Source: an uncultured Caldilineaceae bacterium | GTDB taxonomy: Bacteria > Chloroflexota > Anaerolineae > Caldilineales > Caldilineaceae | DNA: 64,000 nt | Assembly: GCA_951813625.1 (NCBI GenBank) | Contig: CATOTS010000014.1 | Span: 62,001 to 126,000, forward strand | Direction of reading: 5' to 3' | In this document: positions 3,456 through 41,800 of the stretch, piece after piece | Layout of the letters: the number at the start of each line of letters is the position of its first letter | Position numbering within the stretch: the first letter of the stretch is position 1 | The notes under the pieces: generated by a model | Told to the model about the DNA's origin: nothing | The model's database searches: none | Seen by the model: only the letters and a program-made list of their open reading frames with translations | Translations under genes and position numbers: made by a program

Positions 3456-3945
3456 CTGAACTGAAATTTGTCTGATTTGAGTGATGGGCAGGATTTGGTA
3501 AGTTGGGGGGGGAGCTGTCTGAACTGTCCAGCAATTCTTCCATCAACTCCTCCCGCAGCGGCGGCGACTCCGCCGCCATCTCGTTCGACGCGGCTTGCGA
3601 GTGATCTTCGCCCCATGACCAAAACGGCCCAGATACAGTTTCTGCCTCCCCCAAAATACTTCGCCTTCCCCTTTTCCTTGTCCATCTCGACCTACGTCGC
3701 TCTCGTAAGGATCTCGGATGCATTCGCGGAATTGGGTGCAGCCCACATTTGGGATGGGAATCGTTGGGCGTGGAATTCATTCCAGTGGAGACTGAAGTTG
3801 TTTGTCGGCTTTTGGGAGAGGCACAGGGCAGGCACAAGGCCCGCCCCTACGGGGGCTGCGGCGTTCGCTGATATTGGGGGCGGCGCGATGGGCTGCAGGC
3901 ATCACGGGCTACATGGAATCTACACTCGGCGGGGGGAGAACATCA

Positions 3946-4003
3946 GGGGGGCGTTGCGGGGGGAGTCCCCCCGCACAAGGGAGGGCCGCAGGCCCGACCG
4001 TCC
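3946..4003. repeat. Dispersed double-hairpin module, copy A
   Basis: GGGGGGCGTTGCGGGGGGAGTCCCCCCGCACAAGGGAGGGCCGCAGGCCCGACCGTCC; stems GCGGGGGG/CCCCCCGC and GGGCC/GGCCC. Confidence 0.9.
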
Positions 4004-4248
4004 AGAGCTGCAGTGGTCAGTTGCTAATGGCCAGTTGCCAGTTGCCAGTGGTCAGTTGCCAGGAACTGCCGGGCGTGGTGGACAGTGGACTGACCATGAC
4101 TCGGTCGCTACATGAGGTAGAGGAACATGTCCTCAATTTTGGACTGCACTCCCCCTGAATTTCGGAGGTTGACAAAAGACAAAAAGTTCATATATATATG
4201 AAATCGTACGAAGATTGAGCCAAATCACCTACTATTCTTTCATTTTTG

Positions 4249-4556
4249 GTAACTACTAAGCCACATACAGCATCGGTCTCGATCAGTCTTCCATCCCCGC
4301 CGCCATTCAGATTATCTGACTGCGTATACAGTTGGCCGCCACCGCGTTGGATAAGCCGCACTGCAGGAATGACGACGTACCGTCGGTGAGCGATGGTTTT
4401 GGAGGGGGGCGTTGCGGGGGGAGTCCCCCCGCACAAGGGAGGGCCGCAGGCCCGACCGTCCCAAAAGCAAGGAGAACGTAAAGCGGAGTGAGGAGAGAGA
4501 AAACACCTTCGCTCACCTCATTCAGGGTTACAGACTGATTGCGGCTGAGTAGTTAC
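4249..4556. mobile_element. 308-bp MITE-like element, copy 1
   Basis: Ends GTAACTACTAAGCC...GGCTGAGTAGTTAC (14-bp TIR, 1 mismatch); flanked by perfect 8-bp duplication CATTTTTG (4241-4248 and 4557-4564); contains hairpin module copy B (4404-4461). Confidence 0.93.
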
Positions 4557-5036
4557 CATTTTTGTGGCGTGAGTCAGGTTCATTTCGGACGCATCAGGGC
4601 GGCTGGTAATTGATGCGTTCGCTTCGGTCAGGTACGGTGGCTCTGAGCGGCGACGGAGTGCCGCTTCCATGCGAGTCTCCTTCTACAATCCTACTCCCAT
4701 TTCACAACAGTAATGCCGCGGGTAAACCCAGCGTTGCTCATTTCTGAGGAATCGCGCTGTGGGCGCCGCAGCCTTACGCGCTTACGCAATTGAACTTAAG
4801 CCCCGCTTTTGCCGGACAGCAGCGGCGTCGGTGCGCCCGCCGCGATTGCCTACGAGGCGGAGTCATTCCGATGAGGGAAATCGCTTGGGCAGCTTACCGT
4901 ATCGTGTAATAGCAGGACCTGGCTCGTGCGCGTTCCAAACGGAGTCGCCTTGGTGCAAAGGAGATAGCCAATGGGAAACGTAAAGGTCGCAGAAATCGGT
5001 TTGCGTCATTTGCCGGTAGACCCGAAAGGAGGGACC

Positions 5037-18512: not shown

Positions 18513-19504
18513 ACCTGAGTTCGGAGTAAATGAGCGCCTTAACAAGCAGGTAGAATTGAAGTTCTCCTACAAAAGTTCTCCAGCAAAGAAAGGCGCTCAA
18601 GGATGAGTATACTCAAACTATTCTGTCAGTGGTTGGTTACACGGGAGAATGCCAAACTGTTGGGCGTGACTCGCAAGCGAGGGCCAGCCCCGCGGTTGAG
18701 CTTGCGTGAAGTGATGACGATTCTGATTCACTTCCACCAGTCGCATTGTCGCGATTTCAAGGCCTACGATGCGCAGCACGTATGTGAGCATGTGCGCAGT
18801 GAATTCCCTACTCTGGTCAGTTACACGCGCTTTGTGGCGTTAATGCCGTCAGCCCTGCCAGCAATGTGTCTCTATCCGCATGGGCGCTTTGGCCAGGCGA
18901 CAGGGGTGGCATTCATCGATTCGACCCCGTTGTCCGTCTGCCACAACCGGCGCATCGCCCGCCACCGAGTCTTTGCCGAGGTGGCCACGCGGGGCAAGAG
19001 CAGCCTGGGATGGTTCTATGGCTTCAAGCTCCATCTGATTGTCAATGACCAGGGTGAATTGCTGGCAGTTCAACTCACGCCCGGCAACATAGATGACCGC
19101 AAGCCGGTCCCACAGATGACCAAGAACCTATGGGGCAAGCTGGTCGGCGACCGCTGCCATCTCTCCCAAGCTCTCTTTGAGCGACTCTTCGCACGCGGAA
19201 TGCAATTGATGGCGGCAGACCGCCCGTTGCCGATCACGCCCATTCGCAACAACATACAGAATCGTCTCGTTGTTCTCGAAGACGAACTGCTCACGCGTAA
19301 GCGCTTCGTCATCGGGACCATCGTTGACCAGCTCAAGAATATCCCGCCGATTGAACATACCCGCCACCGGAGTCCAACCAACTCTATCGTCAATCTTATC
19401 GCCGGGCTGATTGCCTACACTTGGCAACCCAAGAAGCCGTCTCTCCATTTCCCAGACAATGACTTGGCTCTCTTGCCAGCCCTAATCTAACTCCGCACTC
19501 AGGT
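18513..19504 (+). mobile_element. IS982-family insertion sequence, diverged copy
   Basis: TIRs ACCTGAGTTCGGAG (left) and CTCCGCACTCAGGT (right); transposase 18603..19490; abuts the MITE at 19505. Confidence 0.9.
18603..19490 (+). CDS. IS982-family transposase, probably inactive
   Basis: LSLREVMTILIHFHQSHCRDFKAY, VAFIDSTPLSVCHNRRI, QLTPGNIDDRKPV. Relative to 52413..53294: 6-aa N-terminal deletion, 8-aa insertion MAADRPLP, VIETIVDQLK changed to VIGTIVDQLK. Confidence 0.9.
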   Translation: MSILKLFCQWLVTRENAKLLGVTRKRGPAPRLSLREVMTILIHFHQSHCRDFKAYDAQHVCEHVRSEFPTLVSYTRFVALMPSALPAMCLYPHGRFGQATGVAFIDSTPLSVCHNRRIARHRVFAEVATRGKSSLGWFYGFKLHLIVNDQGELLAVQLTPGNIDDRKPVPQMTKNLWGKLVGDRCHLSQALFERLFARGMQLMAADRPLPITPIRNNIQNRLVVLEDELLTRKRFVIGTIVDQLKNIPPIEHTRHRSPTNSIVNLIAGLIAYTWQPKKPSLHFPDNDLALLPALI

Positions 19505-19789
19505 TAACTACTAAGCCACATGAAGCGTCTGTCTCGACCAGTGCTTCATCGCCGCCGCCATTCAGATTATCTGATTGCGTATTCGGTTGGCCGCCACCAC
19601 GTTGGATAAGCCGCACTGCAGGAATGGCGGCGTACCGCCGGTGAGCGAAGGTTTTGGAGGGGGGCGTTGCGGGGGGAGTCCCCCGCACAAGGGAGGGCCG
19701 CAGGCCCGACCGTCCAAATAGCAAGGAGAGAGAAAACACCTTCGCTCGCCTCTTTCATGGTCGCAGACTGATAGCGGCTGAGTAGTTAC
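19505..19789. mobile_element. MITE-like element, copy 2 (shorter, left end joined to IS982)
   Basis: TAACTACTAAGCC...GGCTGAGTAGTTAC with the same interior; hairpin module copy C at 19659-19715. Confidence 0.88.
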
Positions 19790-25589: not shown

Positions 25590-25887
25590 CCCGGCCTGGT
25601 GGGAAGCGCAATCGAAATCCTCGGGCCCGGACCGAGCGCTCTGTAGGGCGAGCGCAGGGCCTGCCCCACTGGTGGCCGCGGCGTTCGCTGACTTGGGGGC
25701 GGCGCGTAGGGCCGCAGGTAGCACAGGTCTGCATTGACCCCATACGCGGCGGGGGACGCGCACTACGGCCGTGTGGGCACGGGGCGGGTTGGCGACGCGC
25801 TGGAATCGCGCAGGCACGGTGGCGGGGCGACGGGCGGCCGGTTGCGCAGGGCTGCATTAGAATCCACACGCGGCGGGTGGGGTTTCA

Positions 25888-25944
25888 GGGGGGCGTTGCG
25901 GGGGGAGTCCCCCCGCACAAGGGAGGGCCGCAGGCCCGACCGTC
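25888..25944. repeat. Dispersed double-hairpin module, copy D (outside MITE context)
   Basis: Nearly identical to copy A; upstream flank also related to that of copy A. Confidence 0.9.
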
Positions 25945-40761: not shown

Positions 40762-40859
40762 ACTCCTTGACGGTTCGGCGCGTCCTATTCGGTTGTCCTG
40801 GGTCTGATTTCACACAATTATGCCACAAATGTACCGGTTTCCCATTTGTTTGTTTGAAG

Positions 40860-41167
40860 GTAACTACTAAGCCACATACAGCATCTGTCTCGACCAGTGC
40901 TTCATCCCCGCCGCCATTCAGATTATCTGACTGCGTATACAGTTGGCCGCCACCGCGTTGGATAAGCCGCACTGCAGGAATGACGACGTACCGTCGGTGA
41001 GCGATGGTTTTGGAGGGGGGCGTTGCGGGGGGAGTCCCCCCGCACAAGGGAGGGCCGCAGGCCCGACCGTCCCAAAAGCAAGGAGAAAGTAAAGCGGAGT
41101 GAGGAGAGAGAAAACTCCTTCGCTCACCTCATTCAGGGTCACAGACTGATTGCGGCTGAGTAGTTAC
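40860..41167. mobile_element. 308-bp MITE-like element, copy 3
   Basis: GTAACTACTAAGCC...GGCTGAGTAGTTAC flanked by perfect 8-bp duplication GTTTGAAG (40852-40859 and 41168-41175); hairpin module copy E at 41015-41072. Confidence 0.95.
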
Positions 41168-41800
41168 GTTTGAAGAGAGTTCGAGTATACAGATCGTCGA
41201 TTCAACTTGAATTCTGTCGACGTTCCATAGAACTAAAGCCGCCCGCCAAGTCTCTGTAACAGACGAGTGATCGTCTTGCTCACAGCGTCGAACCCCCAAG
41301 TGCATCTTTGACATTGGCATTCAGATCCAGTATTATGCCCGCTGTCCGGCAAGGTGACGGCAGAGAGGTGGCGAGGGCCTGCGTCCTGAATGTACGTCGA
41401 GCAGGGAGGTCGGGCACTCATCAGTTGGTCTCTCTTCCGAGATCCAGTTGACATCTCTAACTCGCAATTCATACAACTTGAGCAGTTCCCCTCTGCGATT
41501 GAGCCTGCAATCCGGTTTTGCGACTCGCAAGATGCCGTCATTTCAAGGAAGTTGCCGGCGGGCTTTGCCGGAGGCTTTTGCGCGGGGCGGGTGAAGGTTG
41601 CCCGTGCGATGATCTGCCGATGCAGGTGTCGATTTCGGACGGTGAACCTGTCGGGAAAGGGGGTGACGGAAAGGAAAGATAGCAGAGGTTAACTCATATT
41701 GAGGCGGCCCAAGTATGGCGCCGCAAATCCATAAGGATTCAGGCAGTGTCCATGTGCGTCCTCACTTGAGCGCACACATAAAGCAAGGAGTACGGTAGTT

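What the first reader, a model, noticed from the sequence alone, without database searches (positions are those of the whole stretch)
4249..4556. MITE family with IS66-like signatures: 308 bp, 14-bp TIRs, perfect 8-bp target duplications
Seen: copies at 4249-4556 (TSD CATTTTTG) and 40860-41167 (TSD GTTTGAAG) have identical length and nearly identical sequence; a third at 19505-19789 is shorter. No transposase gene inside. Established: IS66-family elements end in GTAA and make 8-bp duplications. Inference: a non-autonomous element moved in trans by an IS66-type transposase.
Basis: partly seen in the sequence, partly recalled or inferred. Interest (0 to 1): 0.7.

Follow-up and report, generated by a model that had tools for sequence, protein, structure and literature searches.

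The report
IS66-driven MITE with shared hairpin core
A short, gene-less "jumping" DNA element present in dozens of copies in an uncultured Caldilineaceae (Chloroflexota) genome is very probably moved by an IS66-type transposase found in the same genome, and it carries a hairpin sequence shared with a second, unrelated family of jumping repeats, into which extra DNA blocks have been slotted.

Summary
Window copies 4249-4556 and 40860-41167 are 308 bp, with 14-bp ends (13/14 matched) and perfect 8-bp duplications; 19504-19789 is a decayed 287-class copy. The genome has at least 65 full-length copies. Among 63, duplications are perfect mainly at 8 bp (26 perfect, 41 with at most one mismatch). 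Four copies have paralogous unoccupied sites with the duplication present once. The family is genus-specific (uncultured Caldilineaceae).

The IS66 inference is supported. The same genome carries a 1539-bp single-ORF IS with GTAACTACTAAGCC ends, 8-bp duplications and an IS66 TnpC: ISBst12-like, with no tnpA or tnpB. A sister species has six identical copies, all with ~8-bp duplications. IS and MITE share only their 14-15 terminal bases, so this is an "ends-only" MITE. Transposition was not assayed.

Beyond the finding, a ~59-bp double-hairpin core in the MITE centre occurs about 313 times in the genome. It also sits in a second MITE-like family with unrelated ends. It is about 8 times less variable than the rest of the MITE. 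It joins swapped arms and cassette blocks: one 479-bp MITE is exactly 308 + 171 bp, with two cores and a perfect duplication. This resembles Neisseria NIME/dRS3 mosaics. New variant of a known kind.

The parts
4249..4556 (+). MITE copy 1, 308 bp
4241..4248 (.). 8-bp target duplication, left (CATTTTTG)
4557..4564 (.). 8-bp target duplication, right (CATTTTTG)
4249..4262 (+). Left terminal inverted repeat GTAACTACTAAGCC, identical to the IS ends
4543..4556 (-). Right terminal inverted repeat GTAACTACTCAGCC
4403..4461 (+). Double-hairpin core of MITE copy 1 (about 313 copies genome-wide)
40860..41167 (+). MITE copy 2, 308 bp, TSD GTTTGAAG
   Evidence: absent from the syntenic interval in several same-genus genomes
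40852..40859 (.). 8-bp target duplication, left (GTTTGAAG)
41168..41175 (.). 8-bp target duplication, right (GTTTGAAG)
41014..41072 (+). Double-hairpin core of MITE copy 2
19504..19789 (+). MITE copy 3, 287-class, decayed (first base mutated, no TSD)
19658..19715 (+). Core of MITE copy 3 (one C deleted)
   Evidence: read from sequence
3734..4151 (+). Copy of the second MITE-like family ('element 2', ends GGGTGCAG...CTGCACTC) carrying the same core at 3945-4003
25887..25944 (+). Core copy in a non-MITE repeat context

Best explanation
A family of non-autonomous, ends-only MITEs (two size classes, about 308 and 287 bp) is mobilised in trans by the transposase (TnpC) of a resident single-ORF, ISBst12-group IS66-family insertion sequence. 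TnpC recognises the 14-bp ends GTAACTACTMAGCC and inserts the element with an 8-bp target duplication. The MITE centre is a constrained or homogenised double-hairpin core that also sits in at least one other repeat family. Homologous recombination, or conversion, at this core exchanges arms and adds cassette blocks. Shown: copies, ends, 8-bp duplications, empty sites, resident IS with identical ends and duplications, shared core, mosaic arms. Inferred: TnpC acts in trans; recombination at the core is the cause of the mosaics. The confidence given is for the IS66-mobilised MITE; the recombination part alone is about 0.6.
For: Autonomous IS: C1:239620-241158 (TSD CCGGAAGG) and C26:7088-8626 (TSD AGAGCGTG) with intact 495-aa TnpC, and a frameshifted copy at C17 (TSD AAAAATTT). 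TnpC matches NF033517 IS66 at 305-308 bits, PF03050 and zf-IS66. Conserved acidic residues of the family are present in an alignment with annotated IS66 transposases. Same ends in G018, whose six IS copies are base-for-base identical and all flanked by ~8-bp duplications (five perfect, one with a single mismatch), which argues for recent activity. MITE duplications: 26 of 63 perfect and 41 of 63 with at most 1 mismatch at 8 bp; none perfect at 5, 6, 7 or 10 bp. Empty sites for L006, L059, L075 and L087 with the duplication once. MITEs with the same ends in G005, G018 and G019. Core.
Against: No transposition assay. IS and MITE share only 14-15 terminal bases, so subterminal TnpC binding sites, if needed, are not evident. 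G005 has MITEs and about 198 cores but no TnpC relative at E <= 1e-60, so there the IS is lost, diverged or unassembled. The right MITE end has one base (CAGCC) that the IS ends lack (AAGCC). The recombination step rests on sequence patterns in metagenome-type assemblies.
Confidence: 0.92

Rival explanations
1. The MITE is mobilised by a transposase of another family with similar ends (for example another family that makes 8-bp duplications), and the likeness of its ends to the IS66 ends is coincidence or convergence.
For: Only the terminal 14-15 bp are shared with the IS; G005 has many MITEs but no close TnpC hit.
Against: A 14-bp identity at both IS ends plus the same 8-bp duplication length in two species. 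No second transposase with these ends was seen among the loci read, although only IS66 transposases were sought genome-wide.
Confidence: 0.05
2. The core is not a recombination site but a functional hairpin (for example an RNA or DNA protein-binding element) kept by selection in each copy; arms were exchanged only a few times by rare illegitimate events. (A rival for the core only, not for the MITE.)
For: Core-to-flank diversity is about 0.13-0.17 in each of three species, as constraint would give, and G000 MITEs are monophyletic, so one core swap suffices to explain its species-specific version. Stem 1 is kept through a C-G/G-C double change.
Against: The MITE ends, which transposition needs, are themselves more variable (0.04-0.11) than the core (about 0.015), so constraint would have to act on hundreds of dispersed copies individually. 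The clearest cassette addition is exact (308 + 171) and several arm combinations occur.
Confidence: 0.35
3. The mosaic and expanded elements are assembly chimaeras made at a 58-bp identical repeat. (A rival for the mosaics only.)
For: An identical repeat of this length in about 300 copies is an assembly hazard; G000 is a 59-contig assembly of unknown method.
Against: The 479-bp expanded MITE carries the same perfect 8-bp duplication on both sides; in the single-contig genome G018 two cores 184 bp apart lie between conserved genes; hybrids appear at several independent loci.
Confidence: 0.08

Closest known systems
ISDge4 / ISBst12 group of the IS66 family (Deinococcus geothermalis; PMC12898284)
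   Same: Single-ORF transposase; imperfect 14-bp ends GTGACTACTCAGCA / GTAACTGCTCAGCA, nearly the ends seen here; 8-bp duplication CCTCGATG; transposition observed in the laboratory.
   Different: It is the autonomous IS; no MITE is described in the passages read. The host is another phylum and the transposase is 449 aa against 495 aa.
Prokaryotic MITEs (Correia elements, MITEPsy1 and others; PMC10969869, PMC3189936)
   Same: Short, no ORF, terminal inverted repeats matching a resident IS, target duplications, mostly intergenic.
   Different: No IS66 link appears in the review text (one search count 0) or in the combined IS66 + MITE papers looked at. A hairpin core shared between families is not part of these descriptions as read.
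Neisserial intergenic mosaic elements (NIMEs): RS units separated by dRS3 palindromes (PMC3898611)
   Same: A short palindromic repeat in hundreds of copies separates interchangeable units of 30-160 bp in intergenic arrays; dRS3-dRS3 recombination has been proposed.
   Different: dRS3 is 20 bp (ATTCCC-N8-GGGAAT) and unrelated in sequence; here the core is about 59 bp with two hairpins and is embedded in MITEs with ends and target duplications.
REP / REPIN elements moved by RAYT transposases (PMC3733652)
   Same: Hundreds of GC-rich hairpins per genome; a GTAG/GGAG-like tetranucleotide precedes the core in MITEs.
   Different: The prefix is not fixed (TCAG in other contexts); two hairpins of a different layout; RAYT association was not tested genome-wide.

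Membership tests
MITE (miniature inverted-repeat transposable element) | Short, no coding capacity for a transposase | tested here: met
   308/287 bp; no transposase ORF inside
MITE (miniature inverted-repeat transposable element) | Terminal inverted repeats | tested here: met
   13/14 bp inverted repeat; 190 genome hits against 3 for the control
MITE (miniature inverted-repeat transposable element) | Target-site duplication of constant length | tested here: met
   8 bp in 41 of 63 copies at up to 1 mismatch
MITE (miniature inverted-repeat transposable element) | Empty sites | tested here: met
   Paralogous empty sites for four copies; no base-exact orthologous one for the window copies
IS66-mobilised element | Termini beginning GTAA and 8-bp duplication | tested here: met
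IS66-mobilised element | Resident IS66 transposase flanked by the same termini | tested here: met
IS66-mobilised element | Mobilisation in trans by that transposase | not testable with these tools
   needs an assay
ISBst12 group of IS66 (for the partner IS) | Single transposase ORF (no tnpA, no tnpB) | tested here: met
   One 495-aa ORF fills the 1539-bp element
Internal-deletion derivative of the IS | Subterminal sequence shared with the IS | tested here: not met
   Only 14-15 terminal bases shared
Neisserial NIME (RS + dRS3) | dRS3 palindrome ATTCCC-N8-GGGAAT | tested here: not met
   The core sequence reads AGGGGGGCGTTGC...; no such motif in it (motif)
Neisserial NIME (RS + dRS3) | Arrays of interchangeable units separated by a common palindrome | tested here: met
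   22 inter-core units in 4 clusters plus 1 singleton
REP/REPIN | Constant GTAG/GGAG tag and associated RAYT (Y1) transposase | tested here: inconclusive
   The tag varies with context; RAYT not searched genome-wide

The most novel reading that the evidence does not exclude
The 59-bp double-hairpin core is an active, sequence-specific recombination platform: cassette blocks are inserted and exchanged at it, and it is distributed through the genome by at least two unrelated transposase-driven MITE families. That would be a mobile, NIME-like cassette system in Caldilineaceae (Chloroflexota), possibly with a dedicated recombinase.
Probability: 0.25. Interest if true: 0.75.

Novelty: new variant of a known kind. 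Interest (0 to 1): 0.5.

Why it matters
No description of a MITE tied to the IS66 family turned up in the papers searched, and IS66 transposition is little characterised, so a MITE-IS pair with matching ends gives a compact test system for what IS66 TnpC needs at its ends. If the core really is a recombination platform, it would show how one short hairpin can be spread by two different transposons and used to reshuffle intergenic DNA across a bacterial chromosome.

Tried and rejected
1) Base-exact orthologous empty site for the window copy at 40860: flanking genes are conserved in 16 same-genus genomes, and the interval lacks MITE ends and core in several of those read, but the intergenic DNA is too diverged to give the exact site; paralogous sites were used instead. 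2) MITE at L068 as a gene interruption: the apparent joined ORF was spurious on its left side; only the downstream DNA-methylase part is a gene. 3) Internal-deletion origin from the IS: rejected. 4) Known RNA family: nothing near a gathering score. 5) Genome-wide concerted evolution as the only explanation of species-specific cores: weakened, since one core swap plus constraint or homogenisation also fits. 6) Exact 18-base hits in Nitrosopumilus, Chitinivibrionales and Oscillospiraceae MAGs: about the number expected by chance in 257 Gb, so disregarded. 7) Plasmid and phage matches to the MITE, and viral-contig matches to the core: none.

Full report
Observation. The two window copies at 4249-4556 and 40860-41167 are each exactly 308 bp, 97% identical, and bounded by GTAACTACTAAGCC / GTAACTACTCAGCC (13 of 14 matched). 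They sit between perfect 8-bp duplications CATTTTTG and GTTTGAAG. The third copy runs 19504-19789; its first base is mutated and it has no duplication. The terminus has 7 window hits at up to 2 mismatches against 0.16 expected. In the whole genome (5.4 Mb, 59 contigs) it has 190 hits against 3 for the reversed control.

Copies and duplications. Two searches, each capped at 40 matches, together list at least 65 full-length loci in two size classes, 308-like and 287-like. In 63 extracted copies a perfect repeat is found at 8 bp in 26 and at up to one mismatch in 41; no copy has a perfect repeat at 5, 6, 7 or 10 bp in that register, and 2 have one at 9 bp. Chance would give about 0.001 perfect 8-bp repeats in 63. 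Paralogous unoccupied sites carry the duplication once: L006 (CATGATAC, 95% over 148 bp, in a repeat on C19), L059 (CCGTGCTA, inside a tandem array), L075 (ACCATCGT) and L087 (GTTCAAAC, one mismatch). At the 40860 locus the flanking genes are conserved in 16 same-genus genomes and the interval lacks MITE ends and core in several of them, but the non-coding DNA is too diverged for a base-exact orthologous site.

Autonomous partner. Pairs of the same terminus about 1539 bp apart enclose a single 495-aa ORF. It matches NCBIfam NF033517 (IS66 family transposase, 305-308 bits, cut-off 180), PF03050 and zf-IS66. Duplications are CCGGAAGG and AGAGCGTG for two intact copies (19 differences in 1539) and AAAAATTT for a frameshifted one. 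The genome has further degraded copies, three of them within about 9 kb of contig 19. An alignment with annotated IS66 transposases shows conserved acidic residues. In G018, a single-contig genome of the same genus that has the length of OX638330.1, "uncultured Caldilineaceae bacterium", six copies of a 1569-bp version are identical base for base and all flanked by 8-bp duplications, five perfect and one with a single mismatch. One of them sits inside a MITE. This argues that the IS was recently active. The closest described element is ISDge4 of Deinococcus geothermalis, ISBst12 group, with ends GTGACTACTCAGCA / GTAACTGCTCAGCA, an 8-bp duplication and laboratory-observed transposition (PMC12898284).

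MITE-IS relation. A word-7 comparison finds only the terminal 14-15 bp in common, so this is an ends-only MITE, not an internal deletion of this IS. In the family-wide search any similarity is confined to one genus (17 of 46 genomes, all the same genus; full-length relatives in G005, G018 and G019), with the same ends and 8-bp duplications. G005 has MITEs but no TnpC hit at E <= 1e-60; loss, divergence or missing assembly are all possible. The step "TnpC moves the MITE in trans" is therefore well supported but inferred.

The core. The MITE centre (4403-4461) holds two hairpins: TGCGGGGGG-AGT-CCCCCCGCA and GGGCC-GCA-GGCCC. A 48-bp probe from it has 313 hits (up to 3 mismatches) in this genome, at most 8 in any other same-genus genome and none in other genera. 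With a free loop, G018 has 303, G005 198 and G019 138. In the MITE its diversity is about 0.015, against 0.116 for the rest, and about 0.04-0.11 in the terminal 10-bp bins. A similar ratio (0.15-0.17) holds in G018 and G005, although part of the G005 sample was fetched through the core and so is biased towards conserved cores. In G005, G018 and G019 the MITE core is TGCGGGGGC-GCA-GCCCCTGCA; the innermost stem pair switches C-G to G-C with the loop. In 15 distinct core forms that pair is always complementary. These forms were chosen by me, whose pattern fixes most other stem positions, and one form with an unpaired innermost position (CGCAA in G005) was left out. So the covariation evidence is a single pair.

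Mosaics. Outside MITEs the core lies in a second MITE-like family of about 400 bp ("element 2") with imperfect ends GGGTGCAGYCCA...TTGGGG and about 8-bp duplications (L220 GACCGACG perfect; others partial, read by eye and the flanks). A copy is in the window at 3734-4151. By end-based classification of 114 core loci in this genome, 52 have MITE ends on both sides, 14 have element-2 ends on both sides, and 5 have one of each. Left and right arm classes are found in many combinations. Several arrays carry 2-3 cores separated by reused blocks (22 units, in four clusters plus one singleton). The clearest case is L224: a 479-bp MITE with a perfect GTTTTGAG duplication and two cores 171 bp apart; removing one block plus core leaves exactly 308 bp that align without gaps to the window MITE (87.6%). 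This is what insertion of a block by recombination between cores would leave.

How to read the core. Two explanations remain open. Homologous recombination or conversion among hundreds of identical cores explains the mosaics and the low diversity in copies whose ends have decayed. Selection on a functional hairpin plus rare exchanges explains the similar core-to-flank ratio in each species, and a single swap explains the G000 version, since G000 MITEs are monophyletic on their flanks. Assembly chimaeras at a 58-bp repeat are possible in principle, but the duplication-flanked expanded MITE and the two-core interval in the single-contig genome G018 speak against that as a general answer.

Comparison with the known. 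For membership, the element meets every tested MITE criterion and its partner IS meets the tested IS66/ISBst12 criteria. The mosaic arrays look like Neisseria NIMEs (dRS3 plus RS units, PMC3898611) but fail the dRS3 sequence test, so they are not NIMEs. A REP/RAYT relation is unresolved: the GTAG/GGAG-like prefix is seen in MITE contexts but not in the others, and RAYT genes were not searched genome-wide. In the papers that could be searched, no MITE tied to IS66 was found; the library lacks most subscription papers, so this is weak evidence of novelty.

Verdict. As a MITE it is a new member of a known kind; the shared, mosaic hairpin core makes the whole a new variant worth following.

Noticed in passing
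L084 (G000:C19:37000-48500): Three degraded IS66 transposase copies within about 9 kb, spaced about 3.5 kb, alternating with paralogous 252-253-aa genes of unknown function: looks like a tandem segmental duplication.
   Followed up: no
window 18603-19490: A DDE transposase gene (PF13612, PF01609) ends 13 bp before the decayed third MITE, which may explain the missing left duplication of that copy.
   Followed up: no
L059 (G000:C8, around 45898): A tandem array of about 79-bp units, into which a MITE has inserted.
   Followed up: partly
L106 (G019:C1:2537078-2540369): Two MITEs in tandem separated by 8 bp (CTAAAAAC), the pair flanked by CATTCTAG/CACTCTAG: apparently one MITE inserted at the edge of another.
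   Followed up: no
window 3734-4151 and similar loci: Second MITE-like family (ends GGGTGCAG...CTGCACCC, about 400 bp); its autonomous partner was not identified.
   Followed up: partly
L163, L171 (G025, same family, other genus): A related single-ORF IS66 element (TnpC 55% identical) with ends GTGACTATTCAGGC and 8-bp duplications.
   Followed up: no
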